A stretch of 30,594 bases of DNA, taken from the IMG/VR virus record IMGVR_UViG_3300048833_000102, positions 1 through 30,594 of that record. One strand, written 5' to 3'. The stretch's first letter is position 1. Each line of letters starts with the position of its first letter. The notes below the pieces were generated by a model, which worked only from the letters and a program-made list of their open reading frames with translations, was not told the DNA's origin and searched no databases. This stretch comes from a virus. Positions 76-20,645 of this stretch are shown piece after piece. The position numbers were made by a program, and so were the translations under genes.

Positions 76-398
76 CAGCTACAGCTGAAAAACTTGCCGA
101 CGCCGAGCCTGTCGCTCTCGGCCGTCCTGTTCTTGTCACCACTGAGTACCGCGGCGTTTTCTTTGGCTATGCCGATGAAACCTCCGGCGATGTCATCACG
201 CTGAAGAACGCACGCAACTGCATCTACTGGCCGTCCGGCAATGGTGGTTTTGGTGGCCTTGCTTCGGAAGGCCCCGCGAGCGGCGCGCGCATCGGATCGC
301 GCGTTTCGCAGATCGAACTTCGCAAGATCACGGCTGTTGCAGAAGTGACGGCGGATGCTGTCGCGAAGTGGGAGGCCGCGAATGTCTATCGCGGTTGA
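72..398 (+). CDS. Small conserved early phage protein (DUF6948-like)
   Basis: A 108-residue soluble protein. The ATG at 72 was chosen over an in-frame start at 6 because an AGGGGA Shine-Dalgarno lies at 61-66 and the ATG overlaps an upstream TGA. The core reads TEYRGVFFGYADE, then ITLKNARNCIYW, GGLASEGP and a C-terminal acidic helix. I associate this pattern from memory with the DUF6948 family of small phage and prophage proteins; that assignment is unchecked and no biochemical function is known to me. The last 17 bases overlap the next gene, whose ribosome-binding site lies inside this one, so the two are probably translationally coupled. Confidence 0.7.
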   Translation: MTATAEKLADAEPVALGRPVLVTTEYRGVFFGYADETSGDVITLKNARNCIYWPSGNGGFGGLASEGPASGARIGSRVSQIELRKITAVAEVTADAVAKWEAANVYRG

Positions 399-693
399 TA
401 GCTACGGCTCCGGCTCCGGCTCCGGCTACGGCTACGGCTCCGGCTACGGCTCCGGCTACGGCTACGGCGACGGCTACGGCTACGGCGACGGCTACGGCTA
501 CGGCTCCGGCTACGGCTACGGCTACGGCTACGGCTACGGCGACGGCTACGGCTACGGCTCCGGCTACGGCTCCGGCTCCGGCTACGGCTCCGGCTACGGC
601 TACGGCTCCGGCTACGGCTACGGCGACGGCTACGGCTACGGCTCCGGCTACGGCTCCGGCTCCGGCGACGGCTACGGCTACGGCTCTACCTAA
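382..693 (+). CDS. Gly-Tyr/Ser/Asp dipeptide-repeat protein
   Basis: A 103-residue protein starting at the ATG at 382, seven bases after a perfect GGAGG at 371-375. After MSIAVDS it is almost entirely Gly-X dipeptides in which X is Tyr, Ser or Asp, ending GYGYGST. It contains no hydrophobic aliphatic residue, Cys, Lys or Arg after residue 7. Each dipeptide is a hexamer, GGC plus TAC, TCC or GAC, so the composition comes from hexanucleotide expansion. There is no signal peptide or membrane segment. It overlaps the upstream gene by 17 bases. I cannot assign a function; low-complexity Gly/Tyr chains are typically disordered and can self-associate. The strong ribosome-binding site and intact frame argue that it is translated. 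Confidence 0.7.
   Translation: MSIAVDSYGSGSGSGYGYGSGYGSGYGYGDGYGYGDGYGYGSGYGYGYGYGYGDGYGYGSGYGSGSGYGSGYGYGSGYGYGDGYGYGSGYGSGSGDGYGYGST
405..688 (+). repeat. Hexanucleotide tandem repeat (GGC-TAC / GGC-TCC / GGC-GAC)
   Basis: About 47 imperfect tandem hexamers of the form GGCNNC, varying only at the TA/TC/GA pair. All three plus frames and a long minus frame stay open through the array because no hexamer variant makes a stop. Length change by whole hexamers would not shift the reading frame of the gene it encodes. Confidence 0.9.
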
Positions 694-753
694 TCGCAAA
701 CCATTCCAATCTCGTGCCGTGCGTATCCAAGCGGGGGCGGTACGAGCATCGAA

Positions 754-801
754 GCCGGGTGAGATCGGGGAAGAGGGACACAGTCCTCTGTCTCGCCCGG
801 C
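754..801 (+). promoter_or_regulatory. Long imperfect RNA stem-loop upstream of the 820 gene
   Basis: The outer arms GCCGGGTGAGA (754-764) and TCTCGCCCGGC (791-801) pair over 11 positions with a single T-G wobble. Inside, AGAGGGAC (772-779) pairs with GTCCTCT (783-789) around an ACA loop with one bulged G. The element ends 18 bases before the ATG at 820, just upstream of the AGGGGGA ribosome-binding site. No T-run follows, so it does not look like a simple intrinsic terminator. It could be a leader regulatory structure, an RNA-processing site or part of a small RNA. The 126-base gap 694-819 holds nothing else I can identify. Confidence 0.6.
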
Positions 802-819
802 ACTTAGGGGGATTACAAA

Positions 820-1236
820 ATGCGCGACACTGGAATTATCGATTTCGATTTTGAGGAGATCGGTCTATCGATCGCCGGCGCCGAAGTCGGAATGTTCTCC
901 GGCACAGCGTCCATCAATCAGGACGGTGCCGTCGTCGGGCTCTATCTCGACGCTTACGTCACAGACCGGGCAGCGCCGCTCGGCATGCCAAAGAAGATCA
1001 CGCGCTATCTCAAAGTTCCGCTTCGTCACCACATCCCATTTGTTTTCGAGAGCTACCTCGCCCGGGAGCTTGCCACGGCAATTGAAACCGGTTGCGAGCC
1101 TGAGATCACCGACAAGCTGAACGACTGGAGCGTTTCGATTGCCGAGCAATCGTTCGAGCCTGTGGCAAGCATTGCCGACGGTTTCGAAGCCATCCGCGAG
1201 GATATCCGTGCGATCTGCCAGGGAGCCGAGCAATGA
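820..1236 (+). CDS. Hypothetical early protein, 138 aa
   Basis: An acidic soluble protein preceded by AGGGGGA at 805-811 and the hairpin at 754-801. The N-terminus MRDTGIIDFDFEEIGLSI and the following alternating segments suggest a beta-rich first half. The C-terminal third (around SIADGFEAIREDIRAICQG) looks helical. No catalytic motif, cysteine cluster or membrane segment was seen. Its stop is overlapped by the next gene's start (ATGA at 1233-1236), so it heads the coupled run that continues to 2191. Function unknown. Confidence 0.7.
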   Translation: MRDTGIIDFDFEEIGLSIAGAEVGMFSGTASINQDGAVVGLYLDAYVTDRAAPLGMPKKITRYLKVPLRHHIPFVFESYLARELATAIETGCEPEITDKLNDWSVSIAEQSFEPVASIADGFEAIREDIRAICQGAEQ

Positions 1237-8652: not shown

Positions 8653-8985
8653 ATGCAAGAAGCGACGATAGTAGAACGACTACGCGGCCTTGGCCGAACG
8701 GAGGACGATCAAACGTTGATAGTCTCAACCAAAGGCAATCATACGTCGATCCTATCGAAAATTGATCACGAAGCCGCCTCTCTCATCGAGCGCCAGCAGC
8801 AAGTCATAGACCTACTGATGAAAGCGGTAGAGCCGTTTGCTGAGCAGTGTGACGTCGTTATCGAGAGGGTGTGTCCGGAGATCATTTTAATCATCGAAGT
8901 ACGGGTCATGGATCTCCGTCGTGCTCGTGAAGCAAAGGTAGAAGCAGAACGTATTTTGAATTCAACACCGAGCACGGCTCTTTGA
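8653..8985 (+). CDS. Hypothetical protein, 110 aa
   Basis: The ATG at 8653 has AAGGA about ten bases upstream. The protein is mainly helical: EATIVERLRGLG, HEAASLIERQQQVIDLLMKA, and a C-terminal RRAREAKVEAERIL. The IERQQQVIDLLMKAVEP stretch is typical of small phage proteins with one amphipathic helix. The moderately hydrophobic stretch CPEIILIIEVRVM is too short for a confident membrane span. Confidence 0.6.
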   Translation: MQEATIVERLRGLGRTEDDQTLIVSTKGNHTSILSKIDHEAASLIERQQQVIDLLMKAVEPFAEQCDVVIERVCPEIILIIEVRVMDLRRAREAKVEAERILNSTPSTAL

Positions 8986-9021
8986 GCCGCAAGTGCGATC
9001 ACCATTTCAGCGGAGGGTTTG

Positions 9022-9357
9022 ATGAGAGGAATTTCGATTTCCGAGAATGACGCAAAAGCCGTCGCTCAGATCCTTCGTGAGGATTGTGGGTGGTTCGCTG
9101 ACGATCGCGACGAGTGGGAATTCGTCCACCATGTGACGAAGGGCTGTGACGAGTATCGCTTCATTGGCGCGCTCGGCTTCGGCGGAAAATTTCGCAACAA
9201 CGGCAATCGCGACGATACACCGTATGTCGATTTCTACCCGGAAGACGCAACGCCAGAGCGAGAGCGCCGAGCACTTCGTGCGAACAAAAAACTTGCCGAA
9301 CTATTCCGGCGACAGGGTGAACGCACACACGAGCATTCGGACAAGGACAGTGGTTGA
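9022..9357 (+). CDS. Hypothetical protein, 111 aa
   Basis: The ATG at 9022 is placed by GGAGGG at 9012-9017; a TTG one codon earlier is less likely. It begins MRGISISENDAKAVAQIL and has a mixed charged body (CGWFADDRDEWEFVHHVTKG, later DDTPYVDFYPED). The C-terminal helix, ERRALRANKKLAELFRRQ, is basic. No domain recognised. The 58-base gap to the excisionase gene holds only that gene's AAGGGGAG ribosome-binding site. Confidence 0.6.
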   Translation: MRGISISENDAKAVAQILREDCGWFADDRDEWEFVHHVTKGCDEYRFIGALGFGGKFRNNGNRDDTPYVDFYPEDATPERERRALRANKKLAELFRRQGERTHEHSDKDSG

Positions 9358-9415: not shown

Positions 9416-9682
9416 ATGACGAAATCTCGCGCTGATCGCCTGAGCAGATTGCCGGCCAATCTGGCGCCGCGCGGGTTGTCGCGCGAGGAAGCCGCGACTT
9501 ACATCGGCATAAGTCCCGGTAAGTTCGACAAAATGGTCGATGACGGATTAATGCCGAAGCCCAAACCTATAGGGGGCCGCCGCGTCTGGGATCTTCGCAA
9601 GCTTGACTCTTACTTCGATGCTCTGCCCGATACCGATGGGCAGGGCGACGATGAGAATCAGTGGAGGCACGTCGCCGTATGA
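9416..9682 (+). CDS. xis: AlpA/excisionase-type helix-turn-helix protein
   Basis: An 88-residue protein with AAGGGGAG just before its ATG. It carries a winged helix-turn-helix of the MerR/HTH_17 class: LSREEAATYIGISPGKFDKM (helix-turn-helix, about residues 19-38), VDDGLMPKPKPIGGRRVWD (wing) and LRKLDSYFDALP. Proteins of this class immediately upstream of tyrosine integrases act as excisionases or directionality factors, and some as AlpA-like regulators. The four-base ATGA overlap with the integrase supports a joint role. Direction of control cannot be seen from sequence. Confidence 0.8.
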   Translation: MTKSRADRLSRLPANLAPRGLSREEAATYIGISPGKFDKMVDDGLMPKPKPIGGRRVWDLRKLDSYFDALPDTDGQGDDENQWRHVAV

Positions 9683-10788
9683 CGGGGGGTCATATGCTGA
9701 CGATCAAGCTACGCTACATCCTGCAGGATACCGACCGACACGGGAATGTGCGCATTTATTTTCGCAAACGTGGCCAACCCATGGTTCGGCTGCGAGAGTC
9801 GCTCGGTAGCGCAGAGTTTATGGCGCACTATCAGCGGTGCATGCGAGGCGAGAGCGAAGAACAAACCCACGCAAGACTTCCCGCAAGCAAGCCGTCTCCC
9901 GGTTCATTCCGCGCCCTGTGTATCGAATACTTTTCGTCGGTTGATTTCACGCAATTGGACGTTACGACCCAGGGCCGCCGCCGTCGCATATTCGATGAGA
10001 TGTTCGCGGAACCAATAGCCCCGAACTCGAACCGATTGTTTGGCGATATGCCGATATCGGACTTGACCTCCAAAGCCGTGCGTGTACTCCGCGATCGGAA
10101 GGCGACGACGCCGGAATCTGCCAACATGCGGCTGAAGGCGCTCCGCGGCATCTTCAAATGGGCGCTGAAGGTCGAGTGCAAAGACGTTAAATCGAACCCT
10201 GTCCGCGATATCGAAAAGCTGAAATCCTTCTCGGATGGGTTCTATGCGTGGACCGTCGACGATGTCGCACAATATGAAAAGCGGCACGCCATCGGCACGA
10301 AAGCTCGGTTAGCAGAATCTCTGATGCTCTTTACTGGCGTCCGGCGGTCGGATGTCGTGAGGCTCGGCAAGCAGCACGTCAAAGACGGGTGGCTTCATTT
10401 TACCGCGTTCAAAGGACGGCGCCGAAGTCCATCCCGCCTTTCTCTACCGATACTTCCGGAACTCCAGCGCATCATAGACCGCAGTCCCTGCGGAGATCTC
10501 ACGTTCCTCGTGAACGATTATGGAAAGCCATTCACGGCCAAGGGTTTTGGCAACCGAATGAAAAAGTGGTGCTTGGAAGCTGACCTGCCGGAGTGCTCAT
10601 CACATGGCCTGCGCAAGGTCGGCGCCACCATCGCCGCGGAGAATGGCGCGACCGACCATCAGCTGATGGCAATCTTCGGATGGAAGTCTATTGCCGAAGC
10701 GCAGCGATATACGAAGAAGGCTAGGCAGGAACGTCTGGCTGGGTCCGGCATGCACCTGCTGCGCAGAAGGAAAGAGAAACAAAAGTGA
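9679..10788 (+). CDS. int: Tyrosine-recombinase integrase
   Basis: A 369-residue integrase; the ATG at 9679 overlaps the excisionase stop, and the longer frame from 9661 is less likely. Residues about 75-170 form the core-binding domain (a SAM-like helical fold, with RALCIEYFSSVDF). The catalytic domain shows Arg in LFTGVRRSDVV (R222), HGLRK (H309 and R312), GWKS (W335, in the His/Trp position) and the nucleophile Tyr in AQRYTKKA (Y344). All expected residues are present, so it should be active. It would join attP to a bacterial attB site. It is the last plus-strand early gene, and late genes converge on it. Confidence 0.92.
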   Translation: MTGGHMLTIKLRYILQDTDRHGNVRIYFRKRGQPMVRLRESLGSAEFMAHYQRCMRGESEEQTHARLPASKPSPGSFRALCIEYFSSVDFTQLDVTTQGRRRRIFDEMFAEPIAPNSNRLFGDMPISDLTSKAVRVLRDRKATTPESANMRLKALRGIFKWALKVECKDVKSNPVRDIEKLKSFSDGFYAWTVDDVAQYEKRHAIGTKARLAESLMLFTGVRRSDVVRLGKQHVKDGWLHFTAFKGRRRSPSRLSLPILPELQRIIDRSPCGDLTFLVNDYGKPFTAKGFGNRMKKWCLEADLPECSSHGLRKVGATIAAENGATDHQLMAIFGWKSIAEAQRYTKKARQERLAGSGMHLLRRRKEKQK

Positions 10789-10977: not shown

Positions 10978-11052
10978 CTAAACCACCACAATGAACGTCG
11001 CTATGGCGAGGCAGACGCAGAACACCCTCGTCCCAGGGCAGAGCGCAGCCAT
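10978..11052 (-). CDS. 24-residue hydrophobic peptide after the holin-like gene
   Basis: The ATG at 11052-11050 shares one base with the stop of the upstream gene (TGATG). The product is MAALCPGTRVFCVCLAIATF and then IVVV, a single hydrophobic helix with three cysteines. The frame extends upstream to 11346, but that part reads as a shadow of the gene at 11052-11306. Its position at the end of a lysis block suggests a small membrane partner of the holin. This is inference from position and hydrophobicity only. Confidence 0.3.
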   Translation of the reverse strand: MAALCPGTRVFCVCLAIATFIVVV

Positions 11053-11306
11053 CACCTGCTGCCATAGAGCTTGACCAGGGAAGCTGCGAGGGTCGTCCAT
11101 CCGATCTTGTCCGCGATCGCGGCCAGCACCATCACCACCCCAGCCGAGGCCATCATGAGATCGCGCGGGTTCCACCGCCGGCCGTCGTCTTTGGGGGCCG
11201 TAGTCTTGGCTCCAAGCTGCCGGACCCGGCACTCGAGGCGGATAAGCCGACGCTCGATAGCCAGCATCCATTGCCAGTTCGGCGGCAACTCTGGAGAGTT
11301 GTGCAT
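11052..11306 (-). CDS. Holin-like small membrane protein, 84 aa
   Basis: An 84-residue protein with an N-terminal amphipathic basic helix (NWQWMLAIERRLIRLECRVR), a polar linker (AKTTAPKDDGRRWNP) and one C-terminal hydrophobic segment (LMMASAGVVMVLAAIADKIG), ending LVKLYGSR. One membrane span with a cytoplasmic helix and a basic tail fits a small holin. It lies in the late operon beyond the endolysin and spanins, and no better holin candidate is on the minus strand. A stem-loop (CGTTCC/GGAACG, 11321-11339) precedes it. Nothing here proves pore formation. It could be another membrane protein. Confidence 0.5.
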   Translation of the reverse strand: MHNSPELPPNWQWMLAIERRLIRLECRVRQLGAKTTAPKDDGRRWNPRDLMMASAGVVMVLAAIADKIGWTTLAASLVKLYGSR

Positions 11307-12764: not shown

Positions 12765-12986
12765 TCACGAGTTCGGGCAAATGGCGTCGAAGACTTTGTT
12801 GTGAGCGACGACCGCGCGCTTCGTCGGCTCAGTGTCCGCCTTGCTCCAGCCTATGGGCTTGAAGGACCGGCAGCCGGAATCGACCGGCACGCTCGAGCAG
12901 CCGCTAATCCCTACGGTAGCGATCAGTAAGCCTGTCAGCAGGAAGGGTTTCGACCGAGCGGCGAGCGGCTTGGGCTTTTTCGACAT
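12765..12986 (-). CDS. Rz1: Rz1-like outer-membrane spanin lipoprotein (nested)
   Basis: A 73-residue lipoprotein. The basic N-terminus and hydrophobic segment FLLTGLLIATVGISGC carry a lipobox (ISGC), giving lipid attachment at Cys30. The mature part has SVPVDSGCRSFKPIGWSK and KRAVVAHNKVFDAICPN, a pattern I recall from alphaproteobacterial Rz1-like proteins. Its start lies inside the Rz gene in another frame (83-base overlap), the classic overlapping spanin arrangement. With Rz it would fuse inner and outer membranes in the last step of lysis. Confidence 0.8.
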   Translation of the reverse strand: MSKKPKPLAARSKPFLLTGLLIATVGISGCSSVPVDSGCRSFKPIGWSKADTEPTKRAVVAHNKVFDAICPNS

Positions 12987-13149
12987 TGATCGTCGTCCTC
13001 TGTTCTATTTTCTGAAGGACGCGAGACTCTCCTTGTTGACGGTAGTGGTGGGCAAAGCCTGCCCAGGCCGTGATGAGTGCAGCGAGGATGCCGCCGGCCA
13101 CGGCCACGCGACCCCAGAGCGTGCCGAAGAACGCAATCAGACCGATCAT
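12904..13149 (-). CDS. Rz: Rz-like inner-membrane spanin
   Basis: An 81-residue protein with a short N-terminus and one membrane helix (VAVAGGILAALITAWAGFA), followed by a charged periplasmic helix (RVLQKIEQRTTINVEKAQAA). This is the i-spanin topology. It starts in an ATGA overlap with the endolysin stop and contains the start of the Rz1-like lipoprotein in another frame. It is shorter than lambda Rz (153 residues) but of the usual size for compact spanins. Confidence 0.75.
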   Translation of the reverse strand: MIGLIAFFGTLWGRVAVAGGILAALITAWAGFAHHYRQQGESRVLQKIEQRTTINVEKAQAARRSVETLPADRLTDRYRRD

Positions 13150-13922
13150 GTTGCCTCCTGCTTGCTCGGGAGATGATGGCAGAGCAGATAGTAGAGGCCT
13201 CCACCGGCTAGGACGGCTGCGAGCACATAAGGCCAGCCAGCAAATGAGAACGCCCAGGCTCCGAGTTCATGGCCTCTCTGGCCGACACCTCGAACGCGCT
13301 GGCCCGTGTTGAGGACTTGCTCTGCTGTTCCGAGTGGATCAGAGGGCATGAGTTGCGCAACGCCGGTTGCTGTCGTCGCAACCACGGCGGCAATTGTTTT
13401 TCGGGATGGAGGCTCGGCGGATTTCTCGACTGTCTGCGGCATGGCGGGTTCGTCGGGAGCCTCGACAGGCTTCAGGAACAGCGCCTGCTCGCGCGCGCGG
13501 CGAGAGACGAGACCTGGCAACGTCCGCCCCTGAGCCTTCACATAGAGCGGGAACTTTTTCGCGGTGCCCATACGGTCGCCCTTGTTCAAGGGCGCGATCA
13601 GCTTCTTCAGATTTCCGGGACCGCAGTTATTACAGAACAGCGTCAGAGCGCCTTTCTCGTTCTCGTTGATCGGCACCGTGACGTAGCGCGTAACATAGCC
13701 CTCGGCTTCTTCCAGGTCCTCCATCATGCGCTTCGACGCTTCGGCTTCGGTCAGCACCATTCCCATCTTGACGCCCATCGTGGTGCCGTAACCGATGGTG
13801 GGAATGTCGTATTTTCCATTACCGAGATTTGTCTGGTATGCGGTGCAGTCTCCGTTCGACAGCCTCTTGTGATAACCCTCGAAAGATTTGTTGAGACGAA
13901 CCGTCTCGTCGTTGACGCTCAT
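13146..13922 (-). CDS. GH24 phage lysozyme endolysin with C-terminal membrane segment
   Basis: A 258-residue endolysin. Residues 1-150 are a T4-type lysozyme (GH24) with catalytic Glu15 in KSFEG and Thr42 in PTIGYGTT, and a C-terminal domain helix, GLVSRRAREQALFL. The second acidic catalytic position, usually Asp before GxxT, is occupied by Thr31 in AYQTN; some GH24 members vary here. There is no N-terminal signal or SAR helix. Residues about 151-220 are a Pro/Ala-rich linker with a mildly hydrophobic stretch, and residues 224-247 form a strong membrane segment (FAGWPYVLAAVLAGGGLYYL). It cleaves peptidoglycan. ATGA overlaps join it to both neighbours. Confidence 0.85.
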   Translation of the reverse strand: MSVNDETVRLNKSFEGYHKRLSNGDCTAYQTNLGNGKYDIPTIGYGTTMGVKMGMVLTEAEASKRMMEDLEEAEGYVTRYVTVPINENEKGALTLFCNNCGPGNLKKLIAPLNKGDRMGTAKKFPLYVKAQGRTLPGLVSRRAREQALFLKPVEAPDEPAMPQTVEKSAEPPSRKTIAAVVATTATGVAQLMPSDPLGTAEQVLNTGQRVRGVGQRGHELGAWAFSFAGWPYVLAAVLAGGGLYYLLCHHLPSKQEAT

Positions 13923-14266: not shown

Positions 14267-14696
14267 CAAAGTCTCTCCACATGCGCTCTTCATCGATTTG
14301 CTGGGCGCGGTCCTCATCCACCCAGACAGGCCCACCGTTTGGGCTTCTCCGCCAGGCGGCGCGGTAGGTCCGGTCTTTCGGAAGGTCGTCGATGTCGACA
14401 ATCTCGATCGCCGTCCCCAAATGTCCGCAGTCGCGTTCCGCGATGATCTCGATCGCCTGCCGCCGGTTGCACCCGCCGGTCATCATCATCCGGGCGTATC
14501 GATAAGCGGCTCCTGGCTTCACGCCGCGCGCCAGCATCCGGTTGAACTGGACGATCCAGAACCACCATCCCCGCCCGTGCCAGGGATGGAACGGATCGGA
14601 GGCGCCGCGCATCAGATAGCTGATCCCGCATTCGGCAGGGCAGGTGATGGCAACCCGACCGTTAGGCCGGGTGTCGAGAATCCGTTCCCGGGTCAC
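14253..14696 (-). CDS. Hypothetical protein downstream of tail fibre, 147 aa
   Basis: GTG at 14696 makes a GTGA overlap with the tail-fibre stop. An in-frame ATG at 14717 gives a longer overlap. The protein has ITCPAECGISYLMRG, a Trp-rich segment (FHPWHGRGWWFWIVQFNRM), then TGGCNRRQAIEIIAERDCGH and a C-terminal acidic part. Four Cys may bind a metal. I recall similar proteins next to tail genes in Rhizobiales phages, but none with a known activity. Confidence 0.65.
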   Translation of the reverse strand: MTRERILDTRPNGRVAITCPAECGISYLMRGASDPFHPWHGRGWWFWIVQFNRMLARGVKPGAAYRYARMMMTGGCNRRQAIEIIAERDCGHLGTAIEIVDIDDLPKDRTYRAAWRRSPNGGPVWVDEDRAQQIDEERMWRDFDARA

Positions 14697-16036
14697 TGAT
14701 CGCCGAGCCCGGTCCAATGCCAGGCGTTTGGGTCAGACGGATTGGACGAATCGTTTTTTGTCATGGTCTGGAATTCAACTGTCCCGGACGCCTGACCACC
14801 GCTGATGATCTCAACCATCCGGTCTCCGTTCGCGGAGCTGGTCGTTTCCACCGTCGCGAGACAAGCCCAGTTCGCAGAGGAAAAGTCGGTGGCAATCGTC
14901 ACGGTTATATCACCTTGTCCGGTATCGGTGATCGAGGTGTTGTTGTAGGAGGCTGAGAGGGCTGGAACGCCAGCCGAGACCGTGGCTTTACCCCAAACTT
15001 TCGGCGCGCTCGGATGAAACTGTTGAGTGGCCGGTGTTACCGCGGTATCGGTCGCCGTTGAGGTTTCCTGAGCGGATTGCGATGCGGTCTTGACCGTTCC
15101 GGCAAACGAGTTCGTCGCCGTTTCGACAACCCAGGCGGAATCCTGGAATTGATAGTTCAGGTTTTCGTCCTGGACGTAGGCGCGCCATCCACTATCCGTG
15201 TAGGGCGTGAAGTTGACCCAACCTGCCCCGGTGTACTGCACCACGTCGTGCTGGGAGAATGTCGACCATGCACCGGACGGAGATGCGGTGAGGAGATAGA
15301 GCGCCCCATGCTGCGGAGAGACCGGCGGCGCCGAAAGCCTATCCGTGATCGGAATGATACCCTGAGAAACTTTGACGAACGGCGAGGTGTGGGAAACGAC
15401 GTTCCAGTTTCCACCATCCGACCTGAGTTCGATGTCCTCGCCATTCAAAGCCAGCGCATATCCGGTCGAGAACGATTTCGAGCCTTCGGAGATGAGCTGC
15501 GAGGATACAGTTGCAAGGATTGCTTGATTTGCCGATCCGGCGTGCTGGACCCGAATGCACCAGCCGTTCCCCATTGCGACCGCAGACGGCAAGGTGAGCG
15601 TCACGTCGCCTGATGAGCAATTGATTTTGAACAGGCTGTTCTGATCGTCTTTGACGACCGTGTAGTTCAGGGATTTCGTAACGACTGGAAACGCTGCGGT
15701 GACCGCAACATCGCTGGACGATGCAGAAACGACGGCGCCGGGAATATTATCGTGCGTCGCAATGGTGTTGCCGGTGCTGTCCTTGATGACGATCTTATAC
15801 GGTGCCGTCCCGACATAGATCAGGGTCCGGGTGATGCCGTTGGTTGTCGGATAGCCTTGGGAATCCGTGACAACCGAAGTCCCGAGACTTGCGGTCAGAT
15901 CGGCATCGGCATAGACCGTTTTAGGGTTCGTGGTCTGAGCGTCATAGAAATAGATCGTCGCTCCCGAGATCGGAGCACCGGTTGAATCATCTGTGATGCG
16001 TTCCCCAGGGGGGAACACATAGGTTGAGTCAGTCAT
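14693..16036 (-). CDS. Tail fibre/spike protein with DUF2793 region
   Basis: A 447-residue receptor-binding-type protein. Residues 1-100 form a beta-rich N-terminal head- or tail-binding domain (PISGATIYFYDAQT, TRTLIYVGTAPYKIVIKDS). Residues about 115-220 are a repetitive beta region. Residues 230-305 match the DUF2793 pattern (SAPPVSPQHGALYLLTASPS, TGAGWVNFTPYTDSGWRAY). The C-terminal 100 residues carry SYNNTSITDTGQGDITVTIA and WACLATVE, a fibre tip domain I recall from alphaproteobacterial phages. Its position after the ejection proteins matches P22 gp9, but no glycosidase motif is seen. It starts just across from the divergent gene at 16052. Confidence 0.8.
   Translation of the reverse strand: MTDSTYVFPPGERITDDSTGAPISGATIYFYDAQTTNPKTVYADADLTASLGTSVVTDSQGYPTTNGITRTLIYVGTAPYKIVIKDSTGNTIATHDNIPGAVVSASSSDVAVTAAFPVVTKSLNYTVVKDDQNSLFKINCSSGDVTLTLPSAVAMGNGWCIRVQHAGSANQAILATVSSQLISEGSKSFSTGYALALNGEDIELRSDGGNWNVVSHTSPFVKVSQGIIPITDRLSAPPVSPQHGALYLLTASPSGAWSTFSQHDVVQYTGAGWVNFTPYTDSGWRAYVQDENLNYQFQDSAWVVETATNSFAGTVKTASQSAQETSTATDTAVTPATQQFHPSAPKVWGKATVSAGVPALSASYNNTSITDTGQGDITVTIATDFSSANWACLATVETTSSANGDRMVEIISGGQASGTVEFQTMTKNDSSNPSDPNAWHWTGLGDQ
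16000..16016 (-). repeat. Short perfect inverted repeat in the tail-fibre 5' end
   Basis: GTTCCCC at 16000-16006 and GGGGAAC at 16010-16016 around a 3-base loop. It lies within the first dozen codons of the fibre gene and 36 bases before the opposing gene at 16052. It could be an operator or an RNA hairpin. Confidence 0.4.
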
Positions 16037-16051
16037 GCGGGGGATTCCTAG

Positions 16052-16294
16052 ATGCGAGAGCCGGTCTTCAATCCGGGCGGCATTGCCGCCTTGATCGTGA
16101 TTGTGGGTACGGTTGCGTTTTGCTTTTGGTACGGGACTTGGGTCAAAGCCGTGATCGAGTCTGGATCGTGGCTACTATTCGGGCTGCTGTTTCTTGCGCC
16201 GTTCGTGGCTGGGTATTTCATCGGTGATGAGCGCGATCGCGCCGACTATCACAAGCTCTTCAGTTGGCTCGCGCGGAAGTTTGGTGTTCGATAA
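16052..16294 (+). CDS. Two-helix membrane protein on the opposite strand of the late operon (moron candidate)
   Basis: An 80-residue protein with GGGGGA about nine bases before its ATG. The first membrane helix is IAALIVIVGTVAFCFWYGTW and the second is SWLLFGLLFLAPFVAGYFIG. The short loop and charged C-terminus (DERDRADYHKLFSWLARKF) suggest both ends are cytoplasmic. It is the only plus-strand gene inside the late region. It fills 16037-16259, where the minus strand has no gene, and overlaps the end of the 704-residue ejection gene by 35 bases. Lone reversed membrane genes in late operons are often lysogenic-conversion genes such as superinfection exclusion. That role is inferred from position alone. 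Confidence 0.65.
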   Translation: MREPVFNPGGIAALIVIVGTVAFCFWYGTWVKAVIESGSWLLFGLLFLAPFVAGYFIGDERDRADYHKLFSWLARKFGVR

Positions 16295-18374
16295 CCGGCT
16301 GGCGTGTGTTTTGGCCTATCGCGTTCAGGATGCGAACGATCGCATCACGCTGAGCGCCGGTTGTCTGCCGATGGTTTGCAAGCTGCATCAGAGCATTGAC
16401 GTAGGTCTCGCGATCTATGCCGCGTGCGGTCAGCAACCGGGCCTGATCTGCCATGATGCGGCCGGCACGTTCTCCAAGCGCATTGTTCATGAGAGCGTTG
16501 ACGCCGCGCCGCGCGATTGCGAACACGAGTTCTCCGGTTGAACGAGGCGCTTCGGTGTTGACGGGCGCTCCGGCTCCGACCGGCAAACGGCTCTGCCCTG
16601 CTTGTCGCCTGGCCGTCGCCGAGTTGCGCATGATCTCGTTGAAGCTTTCCGCCATCGTGTTTTCGGCGTCGACGAGCCGTGCAAGATGGTTCGCACGCGG
16701 TCCTCCGGCGATCTGCGCCACATTCTGCCGCGCAAATTCGCTGTTGAGCGTTCGGCGCGCCGTCGCATCTCCATTGGTACCGAAGTTCGTCGCCGCCCTC
16801 CCCATGATCTGACGCAGATCGTTCCGGGCGCCATGCCGGTACATTGTTTGTCCTGCCTGAGACATATTGGAAAGCTCATCCGCAACGATGTTGGGATCGC
16901 GCTTGGATGAGAAAACGGTAGAGCCCAGTTCCGCGGCTTCCCGGCCTTCCAACCCATCTCCAGCAATCGAGCGGGCGATCGCCCAAGCGCTTTGCGTCGG
17001 ATCGTTCGGACTGAGATGCGTGTCGATAGTTGTGCGCAACTGACGAGCGAGGTTGCCATAGATCCGAGCCTCGTTACTGCCACGCTCCGCGCCGCGCGCG
17101 AGATCGTCGACGGCTCTCTTGAGGTAATCGTACTCAAGTCCGGTCGGAACCGCCTCGCGCGCCGTGCGCTGCACGCCAGTCATGGCCTGCATCGGATCAT
17201 TGACGGGGCGCAAGCGGAACTGTTGCCGATAGCCGTCGGCGCGGGCGAGCGTCTGAGCACGGTTGAACGCCGAAGCTGGTATGCTATCCAGCACATTCCG
17301 GATTTCTGGCGTTACCGGGATCGACGTGGCATGGAACTGATCATAATAGGGTGCAGCCTGCTGCCGGGTTCCGCGCGTTACCGTATCGACAAACTGTCCG
17401 AGGTTTCGTTCAGGTCCGAGCGCTCGATCAACCCCGGCTCTAATTCGGTCCGGCGCATCGGCACGCCGGGCATTGAGCTCGCCCCGAACTATGGGAAGCT
17501 GCGGACCGTGCGTGTTGGCAAGCGTTTCGGCTGAACCGCGAAGATCCTCGCCCATATCCAGCAACATGCCTTGCGGACCGAGTTCTTGCGATTGCCTCGC
17601 ATATTGACCTGGCGTGAGCCCAGATGACGTCATGTCGTCGGCTACACGGTTCACAGCGCCGCGCTCGAATGGTTGCAGAGCTGCAGGCAATGGAGCACGC
17701 CAATTGGAGAAAGAATTGACAGCATTCCCAACGCCGCGCGCTACCGCCGGCGCAGCGGCCCCGATCGCGCCGCCCCAGCCAGCCCCTTCCAGCGCATTCC
17801 AAATGCGATTTGTGTCCTCGCCTTCACCGGCGCCGTACATCGCGCCGTAACCAACGCCCGTCAGTGCAGCATTTCCGGCCTCCGGGAGCAACGATGCTCC
17901 GCGGAACACGCGCGCTGCTCCGAACGGCGCGCTAGCGGCGACGCCCCCGACGACTGCCAACCCTTTGGTGACGTCACCAAGCACACTTGAATCTTTGTCG
18001 ATGTACCGCTGACGAGCGTTCTGATAGGCCTTCGCTTCGTCGTATGGCTGCCCGACCCTGCCGCCGCTGATCTTGTTCAGGCCTGCGTCAATGCCCGCTG
18101 ATGCTTCATCCAGCCATGACCCAAATGGGAGGTATTGTGCCGGGCTCGCATGCGGCGCGAACCCTCCAGCAGCTTCCTTTGCCACGCGCGCGTCTGCGGC
18201 CTTATCGATATCAGACAGTTGCGGTCCGGCGTCGACAACTGGCGTCTTCGGATCTGCCGGTTGCTTCGCAAATGTTTGGCTCGCAAATGTCTCAATTTGC
18301 TGCGGCGTTGCATCGTCCGGCCCCTCAAAAACATGGCGGGCGCCGTCGGGTCCTTCAACAACGTATTTGGCCAT
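16260..18374 (-). CDS. Large putative DNA-ejection (internal virion) protein, 704 aa
   Basis: Begins MAKYVVEGPDGARHVFEGPD and continues DATPQQIETFASQTF, a short N-terminal module I associate with phage internal virion proteins. Residues about 130-225 are Gly/Ala-rich with several possible membrane-active helices (GLAVVGGVAASAPFGAARVF, then WGGAIGAAAPAVARGVG). The remaining 470 residues are helical and rich in Arg and Gln. It is in the position of P22 gp16, an ejection protein that helps DNA cross the inner membrane. No lytic-transglycosylase motif was seen. Its ATG shares one base with the upstream stop (TAATG). Confidence 0.75.
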   Translation of the reverse strand: MAKYVVEGPDGARHVFEGPDDATPQQIETFASQTFAKQPADPKTPVVDAGPQLSDIDKAADARVAKEAAGGFAPHASPAQYLPFGSWLDEASAGIDAGLNKISGGRVGQPYDEAKAYQNARQRYIDKDSSVLGDVTKGLAVVGGVAASAPFGAARVFRGASLLPEAGNAALTGVGYGAMYGAGEGEDTNRIWNALEGAGWGGAIGAAAPAVARGVGNAVNSFSNWRAPLPAALQPFERGAVNRVADDMTSSGLTPGQYARQSQELGPQGMLLDMGEDLRGSAETLANTHGPQLPIVRGELNARRADAPDRIRAGVDRALGPERNLGQFVDTVTRGTRQQAAPYYDQFHATSIPVTPEIRNVLDSIPASAFNRAQTLARADGYRQQFRLRPVNDPMQAMTGVQRTAREAVPTGLEYDYLKRAVDDLARGAERGSNEARIYGNLARQLRTTIDTHLSPNDPTQSAWAIARSIAGDGLEGREAAELGSTVFSSKRDPNIVADELSNMSQAGQTMYRHGARNDLRQIMGRAATNFGTNGDATARRTLNSEFARQNVAQIAGGPRANHLARLVDAENTMAESFNEIMRNSATARRQAGQSRLPVGAGAPVNTEAPRSTGELVFAIARRGVNALMNNALGERAGRIMADQARLLTARGIDRETYVNALMQLANHRQTTGAQRDAIVRILNAIGQNTRQPVIEHQTSARAN

Positions 18375-19552
18375 TATTCCACCCTACCGAGGTATTTGAA
18401 CCCCGACGCACCCGAGGATGCTTCCGGTTGCAATGCTGCGGGATTGCCGCCCCTTGCCCGATCGCGAGCTATGTCACGAAGCTTGACGACCTCGCTGCGG
18501 AATTCCGCCAGGGCTTTCTTATAAGACTCGGTTCCGAGTTGCTGAGAGCGTAGGCGATTGTACGCCGCCTGGGCGGCTTCGCCTTCTTTCTCCGTGATGG
18601 CACCCGCTCCGCGCAAGTCATTATATGCCTGCAAAAAGGTGTTGCCGTTGATATAATCAATCTGGGATTGCGCGTTCTTTGCTTCTTCCGAGGTGTTCGT
18701 CCATTCAGGAAGACGCCCGTACACCGTGCCAGTCACGCGCTCCAAGCCGGAATTGGGCGACAGCAACGTATCGATAGCACCGATCATTCGCTGGGCCGAA
18801 TTTTCGGCTAGAGGGAGATTGATCGCCGCCTTGCCCTGCGCCTCACCTTGCACAGCGGCAGACTTTCCAGCCGCAATATTCGCCCCGACATTCCGAATAG
18901 GCTGGCCGGTAGCCTTGTCGATCAACTCATCACCGACGGTCTCAACGCCCTTCGATGGCGTTAGACCTCCAAGCTCTGTGCGCTTGACCTGTCCGCGGCC
19001 GCCGAACTGCACCGCCTCATAGCGGCCCGTCTCGGGATTGAGGAAGATCGCTCCTGTCTTGCCGTAGGCTTCGCCGCCGTTCTGCGCTTCGACGTTGAGC
19101 TTGTTGATCTTGGCCCGCGTTTCCTGAAGCGCTAGATCCTTCGCTTGGCTGTCTCGCGGATCGAGGTACATCCCAGCTTGTGCGGCCATAAGCTTTGGAC
19201 CATTGGCGGGGTCCAGTTCTTCCTCGGTCAATGTCTGACCCGGAAACATCTTTTGATGAGTTGAAATCAAGTTCTGATAGGCTTGCGCCCGGCGGGGATC
19301 GCCTACTGGGAACGCCTGATCAATCGCCGTGGCCCGTTTCCCGAACAATTCGACGTTCTGACGGTCCGCTGCTTGTTTGGCCTGGCCTTGCTCAAATGCA
19401 AATTGCTGATCGGCTCTGTCAGAAGCCCGTTGTTGAAGGCCGAACTGCCGGTTCTGATTGTTCTGCTGTTGAATGGAATCGAGTGCAGCGTTGACCGGCT
19501 CGAGGTTAATCCCTGGACCGGTGCGGTAAGCTGGGAGTGGAATGTAAGCCAT
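18374..19552 (-). CDS. Putative ejection/internal virion protein, 392 aa
   Basis: The ATG at 19552 follows the HNH stop in a TGATG overlap; an upstream TTG is less likely. The N-terminal 120 residues are Gln/Ala-rich helix (ALDSIQQQNNQNRQFGLQQR). The C-terminal 140 residues read SAQRMIGAIDTLLSPNSGLE, TFLQAYNDLRGAGAITEKEG and ALAEFRSEVVKLRDIARDR. The latter is a pattern I recall from many phage internal or tail-accessory proteins. It sits where P22 has gp20, an ejection protein. It is coupled to both neighbours. Confidence 0.75.
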   Translation of the reverse strand: MAYIPLPAYRTGPGINLEPVNAALDSIQQQNNQNRQFGLQQRASDRADQQFAFEQGQAKQAADRQNVELFGKRATAIDQAFPVGDPRRAQAYQNLISTHQKMFPGQTLTEEELDPANGPKLMAAQAGMYLDPRDSQAKDLALQETRAKINKLNVEAQNGGEAYGKTGAIFLNPETGRYEAVQFGGRGQVKRTELGGLTPSKGVETVGDELIDKATGQPIRNVGANIAAGKSAAVQGEAQGKAAINLPLAENSAQRMIGAIDTLLSPNSGLERVTGTVYGRLPEWTNTSEEAKNAQSQIDYINGNTFLQAYNDLRGAGAITEKEGEAAQAAYNRLRSQQLGTESYKKALAEFRSEVVKLRDIARDRARGGNPAALQPEASSGASGFKYLGRVE

Positions 19553-20043
19553 CAATCAACCCTCGCAAACGCACCAAAAAGGCTGCGAGCGGCACGGTTA
19601 TATGCGCCGCGAGCTTCTTCCTTAGTTTTAAAGTTTCCGAGAAAATGATTACGTCCATTCTTCATAATGGATGCGGAAAACATGGCGCCACGACTGTTTT
19701 TTCTAACGCCTCGATATCCGGTCTTCGACTTGCGAATTACACTGTTGGCGACATTTTCTCCGTAATTCGCCTCTCGCAAGTTCGCCATCCGATTGTCAGA
19801 TGGATCGCGATTACAGTGGTCGATCAGAAGTTTTGGAAATTCGCCATGAACATACAGCCACGCCAACCGATGCGCGTAATGGCAGACGCCATCTATCTTA
19901 ATCTTGCGATAGCGTTTGGCGTCGAGAGAACCGGCAACGGCTCCTTTCTTTCTCGTTCTGTCAGTCGGAGCAATCCAACGAAACTCCCCGATCTCTGGAT
20001 CATATGAGAGAAGTTGCTTGAGACGTTCTTGATCCAGCATCAC
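19552..20043 (-). CDS. HNH + AP2 homing endonuclease inside the ejection-gene block
   Basis: A 163-residue protein from GTG 20043 (GTGA overlap) or 162 from ATG 20040. It has the same layout as the gene at 6336: an N-terminal part (LKQLLSYDPEIGEFRW), the HNH core with YAHRLAWLY and LIDHCNRDPSDNRMANLREA, then an AP2 domain (GYRGVRKNSRGAMFSASI, HFLGNFKTKEEARGAYN). The catalytic His is present, so it should be active. By eye it is about 40% identical to the left-arm protein. A manual count gives about 50% G+C across 19561-19980, against 59% in two 60-base lines of the next gene. Free-standing homing endonucleases of this type spread by cutting phage lacking them. Confidence 0.9.
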   Translation of the reverse strand: MMLDQERLKQLLSYDPEIGEFRWIAPTDRTRKKGAVAGSLDAKRYRKIKIDGVCHYAHRLAWLYVHGEFPKLLIDHCNRDPSDNRMANLREANYGENVANSVIRKSKTGYRGVRKNSRGAMFSASIMKNGRNHFLGNFKTKEEARGAYNRAARSLFGAFARVD

Positions 20044-20645
20044 TTTACTCCGTTGAATGCGCCGTAAGCTTTGGCGCCGGTTCCGAGCACAGCGAGCACG
20101 TTGTTCAGGCCAGCGTTACGCGTGCCAGCCATCGCGTTTCCGAAATTTATCGCATTGCCTGCTTTGGTCGCGCCGTAATCAAACGCGTTTTGGCCCTGTG
20201 CCGTTCGAACACCGGCCTGCTGTCCCGTGGCGGAGAGGCCCGTCTGGCCCATCCCCTGATATCGGTCGAGCACGTTGTTGTAGTTTTGAAGCAGAACACG
20301 TTGACCGGCGAGCGCCGCGGTGCCGGAAGCACCCATGCCCCGAGCATTGAGGTTTTTCAGGACAGCGTTGGTGTCTTCACCAAGCTTTCCGGACCAGAGC
20401 GGATCGGACGTAATGATGCCTTGAGCCGATGACCTCGCGTCGGTGCCATTGAGCCCGAGAAGATCGCCGTACATCTTCTGACCGGCGGTTCCTGACGACA
20501 CATACGGATCGAAAGAGCTTGCCGCCTGATCGTAGTACCCCTGCGAGGTGTTGTAGCCCTGATCGAGAGCCGCATTAGCGTTCTTGTTGGCCTTGTTGAT
20601 ATCGGAGCGCGCGGAGGCGCCCGTGAAGTCCGAAAAGAACCCCAT
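20040..20645 (-). CDS. Putative ejection protein (gp7 position), 201 aa
   Basis: The N-terminus MGFFSDFTGASARSDINKAN leads into Ala/Asn/Gly-rich helices (ANAALDQGYNTSQGYYDQAA). The C-terminal half is Gly-rich and amphipathic (ARGMGASGTAALAGQRVLLQ, then AGLNNVLAVLGTGAKAYGAF), as in membrane-active ejection proteins. AAGGAAAT precedes its ATG. Order and size fit P22 gp7 (about 229 residues), but sequence similarity cannot be judged. It stops four bases into the HNH gene start. Confidence 0.65.
   Translation of the reverse strand: MGFFSDFTGASARSDINKANKNANAALDQGYNTSQGYYDQAASSFDPYVSSGTAGQKMYGDLLGLNGTDARSSAQGIITSDPLWSGKLGEDTNAVLKNLNARGMGASGTAALAGQRVLLQNYNNVLDRYQGMGQTGLSATGQQAGVRTAQGQNAFDYGATKAGNAINFGNAMAGTRNAGLNNVLAVLGTGAKAYGAFNGVK

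What the first reader, a model, noticed from the sequence alone, without database searches (positions are those of the whole stretch)
16052..16294. Reversed two-helix membrane gene embedded in the late operon
It is the only plus-strand gene in 19 kb of minus-strand late genes and fills a gap with no minus gene. It carries its own GGGGGA site and overlaps the end of the gp16-position gene. Prophage-expressed morons with this topology often block superinfection. The short inverted repeat at 16000-16016 just upstream may be an operator.
Basis: partly seen in the sequence, partly recalled or inferred. Interest (0 to 1): 0.65.

Follow-up and report, generated by a model that had tools for sequence, protein, structure and literature searches.

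The report
Reversed membrane gene beside ejection genes
A small gene reading backwards inside this bacterial virus's late genes encodes a real two-helix membrane protein, and it sits exactly where the Salmonella virus P22 keeps the gene that stops rival viruses injecting DNA, so it probably lets cells carrying the dormant virus shut out related viruses.

Summary
ORF 16052-16294 (+) is an 80-aa, two-helix membrane ORF, antisense in a P22-like late operon and overlapping the gp16-position gene by 35 b. It is real: a diverged phage (L084) has a 39%-identical homologue, same slot and orientation, dN/dS ~0.37. The slot is a hotspot: of 19 relatives with a gap of at least 100 b, 15 carry a reverse-strand membrane ORF there (2.9 expected); about 20 others have no gap. 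Many filled slots hold a hairpin with a 5-11 aa loop. One lies in a prophage on a 3.44-Mb chromosomal contig. The slot gene is inherited with the gp16-position gene, not the fibre: window and L004 are ~94% alike up to the gp7-like gene and ~88% alike in the fibre, but differ from the C-terminal half of the gp20-like protein to codon 3 of the slot gene. P22 keeps sieA in this slot and orientation, and SieA-escape mutations map to gp16 and gp20 C-termini (PMC10883804). Best reading: a miniature, SieA-analogous injection blocker carried with its target. It is not a SieA family member (no homology; 2 helices, not 3). The 16000-16016 repeat is mostly fibre FPPGE codons. No function or transcript was shown.

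The parts
16052..16294 (+). slot gene (ORF80): 80-aa two-helix membrane hairpin with amphipathic C-terminal helix, motif GDxxDRADxHK
   Evidence: homologue in L084, same slot and strand, dN/dS ~0.37; AF2 hairpin
16037..16051 (.). 15-b divergent start block CAT-gcgggggattcctag-ATG: GGGGGA before the slot gene, AGGAA (minus strand) before the fibre gene; recombination boundary
   Evidence: near-identical block in window, L019, L021, L022, L023, L069 and G178, before mostly unrelated slot genes
16260..18374 (-). gp16-position gene, 704 aa (PHROG 5880, function unknown); tail-to-tail with and overlapping the slot gene by 35 b; inherited with it
18374..19555 (-). gp20-like ejection protein (PHROG 2534); its C-terminal half is part of the swapped unit
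20040..20645 (-). gp7-like DNA ejection protein (PHROG 598)
14693..16036 (-). tail fibre gene; its conserved N-terminal coding DNA lies just upstream of the slot gene
16000..16016 (.). inverted repeat formed by FPPGE fibre codons; not conserved as an operator
9661..10788 (+). tyrosine integrase: the phage is temperate
   Evidence: PF00589, E 4.8e-16

Best explanation
ORF80 is a prophage-expressed moron in the slot that P22-like phages keep between the gp16 ejection gene and the tail fibre/spike gene. It makes an inner-membrane hairpin (probably N-in, C-in) that blocks superinfection at DNA injection by hindering assembly or function of the incoming virion's ejection-protein conduit (gp20-like and gp16-position proteins) at the inner membrane. 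Because the blocker must fit that conduit, it travels in one recombination cassette with the gp16-position gene and the C-terminal half of the gp20-like gene. Shown here: real gene, membrane hairpin, fixed slot and orientation, presence in a prophage, turnover, joint inheritance with the gp16-position gene. Inferred: expression in the lysogen, inner-membrane location, target, and the exclusion itself.
For: Homologue under purifying selection in a diverged phage, same slot and overlap. Reverse-strand membrane ORFs fill 15 of 19 slots against 2.9 expected (P ~2e-10 if loci were independent, which they are not fully; forward strand 1, expected 1.7). Recurrent hairpin plan with a 5-11 aa loop. Same slot and strand as P22 sieA, 22 b after gene 16. 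A further reversed 99-aa hairpin is tail-to-tail with a gp16-like gene on a 465-kb bacterial contig, G439. Seven of seven clearly homologous slot pairs share the gp16 type; L022 and L023 have nearly identical fibre N-termini, different gp16 types and unrelated slot genes. Swap unit runs from the gp20-like C-terminal half to codon 3 of the slot gene. [quoted passage not shown]
Against: No expression or phenotype data. No homology to SieA or to any defence, Pfam, NCBIfam or PDB family. The gp16-position protein has no detectable similarity to P22 gp16, so its ejection role rests on synteny. Joint inheritance could be plain linkage of overlapping genes; the Mantel correlation is weak (gp16 r 0.24, P 0.006; fibre r 0.22, P 0.08). 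No promoter seen. P22 SieA types are not strictly matched to ejection-protein type: two very different SieA proteins have the same target range (PMC10883804).
Confidence: 0.58

Rival explanations
1. Moron with another envelope function in the lysogen (receptor or surface change, membrane stress, host fitness) that shares the slot only because it is a tolerated insertion site and shares inheritance with gp16 only by linkage.
For: Slot contents are heterogeneous: 29-aa single helices, hairpins, a signal-peptide Cys-rich protein in L013, a soluble 69-aa ORF in L036, a 299-aa membrane protein in L041. The P22 slot also holds non-exclusion genes (PMC2629481).
Against: Recurrence of a small hairpin design, and swaps that include the gp20-like C-terminal half.
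Confidence: 0.22
2. A class II type holin or antiholin: size and probable N-in/C-in hairpin topology resemble such holins, and no annotated two-helix holin is in the lysis cassette (endolysin 13146-13922, spanins 12765-13149).
For: Topology; no clear holin.
Against: Opposite strand to the lysis genes; about 20 relatives lack a slot gene; fillers range from one to four helices; another membrane candidate, 11052-11306 (-), lies in the late operon; the endolysin has its own C-terminal hydrophobic segment.
Confidence: 0.1
3. Lytic-cycle partner of the ejection proteins (chaperone or membrane factor) or an antisense regulator of the fibre and gp16-position genes.
For: Tail-to-tail overlap and joint inheritance with the gp16-position gene.
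Against: Dispensable in relatives without a slot gene; protein-level conservation argues against a purely RNA role.
Confidence: 0.07
4. Spurious antisense ORF.
For: High-GC DNA yields many antisense ORFs; weak codon-usage signal.
Against: L084 homologue, open only in this frame in both phages, dN/dS ~0.37; recurrence in the slot.
Confidence: 0.03

Closest known systems
SieA of Salmonella phage P22
   Same: Slot between gene 16 and the tailspike gene, reverse strand, tail-to-tail with gene 16; small membrane protein; temperate P22-like phage
   Different: 80 aa and 2 helices against about 162 aa and 3; no sequence similarity; no FxRYPxEAxxFNK motif; function untested
'ant moron' hotspot of P22-like phages (PMC2629481)
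   Same: Variable, sometimes empty gene set between the gene 16 and gene 9 homologues; non-morphogenetic genes
   Different: Here usually a single small reversed membrane gene; no ant/arc/mnt genes recognised
T4 Imm and HK97 gp15
   Same: Small membrane proteins that block phage DNA injection (PMC11436027, PMC10883804; the small size of Imm is from general knowledge)
   Different: Different phage types; no homology test made
Class II holins (such as pinholin S21; general knowledge)
   Same: Short two-helix hairpin
   Different: Opposite strand to and away from the lysis cassette; absent in many relatives

Membership tests
P22 SieA | Sequence homology to SieA types A-C | tested here: not met
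   hhalign with P22 SieA (type A): probability 0.3%; types B and C were not compared
P22 SieA | About 162 aa, three or more predicted TM helices | tested here: not met
   80 aa, two TM helices
P22 SieA | Conserved FxRYPxEAxxFNK motif | tested here: not met
   absent from the translation; motif from PMC10883804
P22 SieA | Reverse-strand gene directly after gene 16, before the tailspike/fibre gene | tested here: met
P22 SieA | Blocks DNA injection from the prophage | not testable with these tools
   needs plating and potassium-release assays
P22-like ant-moron slot | Variable non-morphogenetic gene(s) between gp16 and fibre/spike genes, absent in some relatives | tested here: met
P22-like ant-moron slot | Independent expression, from the prophage | not testable with these tools
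   no RNA data; no E. coli type promoter found
Class II holin | Two-helix hairpin | tested here: met
Class II holin | Late-expressed with the lysis cassette | tested here: not met
   opposite strand; lysis genes at 12765-13922 (-)

The most novel reading that the evidence does not exclude
A widespread cassette in distant P22-like phages joins a miniature two-helix injection blocker to the ejection proteins that it recognises (gp20-like C-terminal half plus gp16-position gene), so that conduit type and self-exclusion type are exchanged as one unit.
Probability: 0.35. Interest if true: 0.7.

Novelty: new variant of a known kind. Interest (0 to 1): 0.5.

Why it matters
How SieA recognises very diverse ejection proteins is an open question (PMC10883804). 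If these 55-100 aa hairpins do the same job, they are minimal injection blockers, with natural swaps (window/L004, L022/L023) that make target specificity directly testable. It would also extend the P22 moron hotspot to distant phages, among them ones in alphaproteobacterial genomes.

Tried and rejected
Operator reading of 16000-16016: largely FPPGE codons (3.6 of 6 pairs expected from the amino acids); over 23 distinct loci 51 pairs observed against 44 expected; high (5-6 of 6) only in the window type, L021, L069 and L084, so a local role is not excluded. Sigma-70 promoter: none. ORF80 alone: no phage hit by tblastn, no Pfam; PHROG 36785 at E 0.007 only. ORF80-profile hits in bacterial genomes (E about 1e-3) lie in 169-566 aa frames and look like chance membrane matches. 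Common ancestry of the two hairpin families: hhalign 5.6%, unresolved. The three gp16-position types: no convincing similarity to one another or to P22 gp16. A fold search with the hairpin model was not run because such models match anything. G357 and G369: neighbourhood rearranged; G033 and G562: slot empty.

Full report
Setting. The window is an IMG/VR virus record of 30,594 b. Genes on the minus strand from 30.5 to about 11 kb form a P22-like late operon: TerS, TerL, portal (PHROG 156), coat protein (334), head closure (578), gp7-like ejection protein (598), an HNH endonuclease, gp20-like protein (2534), a gp16-position protein (5880), tail fibre, endolysin and spanins. The left 10.8 kb reads plus and ends with a tyrosine integrase. 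The phage is temperate.

The ORF. 16052-16294 (+) fills the only gap between the gp16-position and fibre genes and overlaps the former by 35 b. A single near-identical contig has the same gene (99.99% DNA identity over 12 kb), which says nothing about selection. The informative relative is L084 (coat protein 53% identical): reverse ORF 8827-9036, in the same slot, overlapping its gp16-position gene by 38 b; 39% identity over 67 residues, E 1e-20, with GDxxDRADxHK shared. In the aligned DNA only this frame is open in both; dN 0.54, dS 1.44. This is a gene.

The slot. Using the fibre N-terminus I collected 46 viral loci and one bacterial contig, and later more through the coat protein and genome searches. 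About 20 loci have no room between the two genes. Of 19 distinct loci with a gap of at least 100 b, 15 hold a reverse-strand ORF with a strongly hydrophobic segment (19-residue Kyte-Doolittle mean at least 1.8); controls at random places on the reverse strand of the same loci predict 2.9; the forward strand has 1, with 1.7 predicted. Several loci are related, so the P value of 2e-10 is too small, but the fillers form many unrelated families. A second homologous family (L022, L025, L048, G178, probably L064) has pairwise dN well below saturated dS. Many fillers share one plan: helix, loop of 5-11 residues, helix, short tail. Others are single helices of about 29 aa (L019, L069, L032), a signal-peptide protein (L013) or a 299-aa membrane protein (L041).

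Prophage. G178 is a 3.4-Mb genome in which the module lies at about 450 kb of a 3.44-Mb contig, with chromosomal genes (MdoG, tRNA-Gly, nitronate monooxygenase, TonB receptor) on one side and an integrase match at 487 kb on the other. It carries a slot gene with GGGGGA before its ATG. The exact prophage ends were not mapped.

Inheritance. The gp16-position genes fall into unrelated types. All seven clearly homologous slot pairs (shuffle z above 10) share the gp16 type; fibres do not predict the slot. Two natural experiments are sharper. L022 and L023 have nearly identical fibre N-termini, different gp16 types and unrelated slot genes; DNA identity begins at the slot gene's start codon. Window and L004 are about 94% identical from the coat gene through the gp7-like gene, 96% in the middle of the gp20-like gene, then unalignable until window 16060, codon 3 of ORF80, then about 88% through the fibre. 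The exchanged unit is thus the gp20-like C-terminal half, the gp16-position gene and the slot gene; the 15-b divergent start block is its border.

Mechanism. P22 sieA lies 22 b beyond gene 16 on the opposite strand. [quoted passage not shown] escape mutations lie in the C-terminal regions of gp16 and gp20 (PMC10883804). The region between genes 16 and 9 is a known moron hotspot (PMC2629481). By position, orientation, membrane nature and swap boundaries ORF80 is best read as a SieA-like injection blocker. It is not a member of the SieA family: homology, helix number and motif all fail. Expression and function remain untested, and linkage alone could explain joint inheritance.

The inverted repeat is the fibre codons TTC CCC CCT GGG GAA with one more pair at either side; relatives with slot genes of the second family lack it or keep it only in part. 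GGGGGA is conserved in the start block of most near relatives, where it may serve the slot gene while AGGAA on the other strand serves the fibre.

Noticed in passing
window 401-685: 47 copies of a 6-b tandem repeat (GCTACG) within ORF 368-1120 (+), a possible phase-variable or low-complexity tract
   Followed up: no
window 19552-20043 (-): HNH endonuclease gene (PHROG 99) inserted between the gp7-like and gp20-like ejection genes; absent there in L004, a homologue in L007
   Followed up: no
L041:3942-4841 (-): 299-aa reversed membrane ORF in the same slot, with no PHROG or PADLOC match
   Followed up: partly
L013:19013-19225 (-): Reversed 70-aa Cys-rich ORF with a signal-peptide-like start in the same slot
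   Followed up: partly
L054:4463-4883 (-): Two small reversed single-helix ORFs in tandem in the slot
   Followed up: no
window 11052-11306 (-): 84-aa ORF with a C-terminal hydrophobic segment at the end of the late operon, a possible holin; no family match
   Followed up: partly
L178 (G439:C12:114000-119000): Reversed 99-aa hairpin tail-to-tail with a gp16-like gene, followed by a second reversed ORF of 199 aa with a signal-like segment
   Followed up: partly
window 16000-16016 and the same codons in L069, L021, L084: Fibre codons keep a 5-6 of 6 inverted repeat despite amino-acid changes (e.g. TTCGCC-CCT-GGCGAA in L069); a hairpin or local operator role is not excluded
   Followed up: partly
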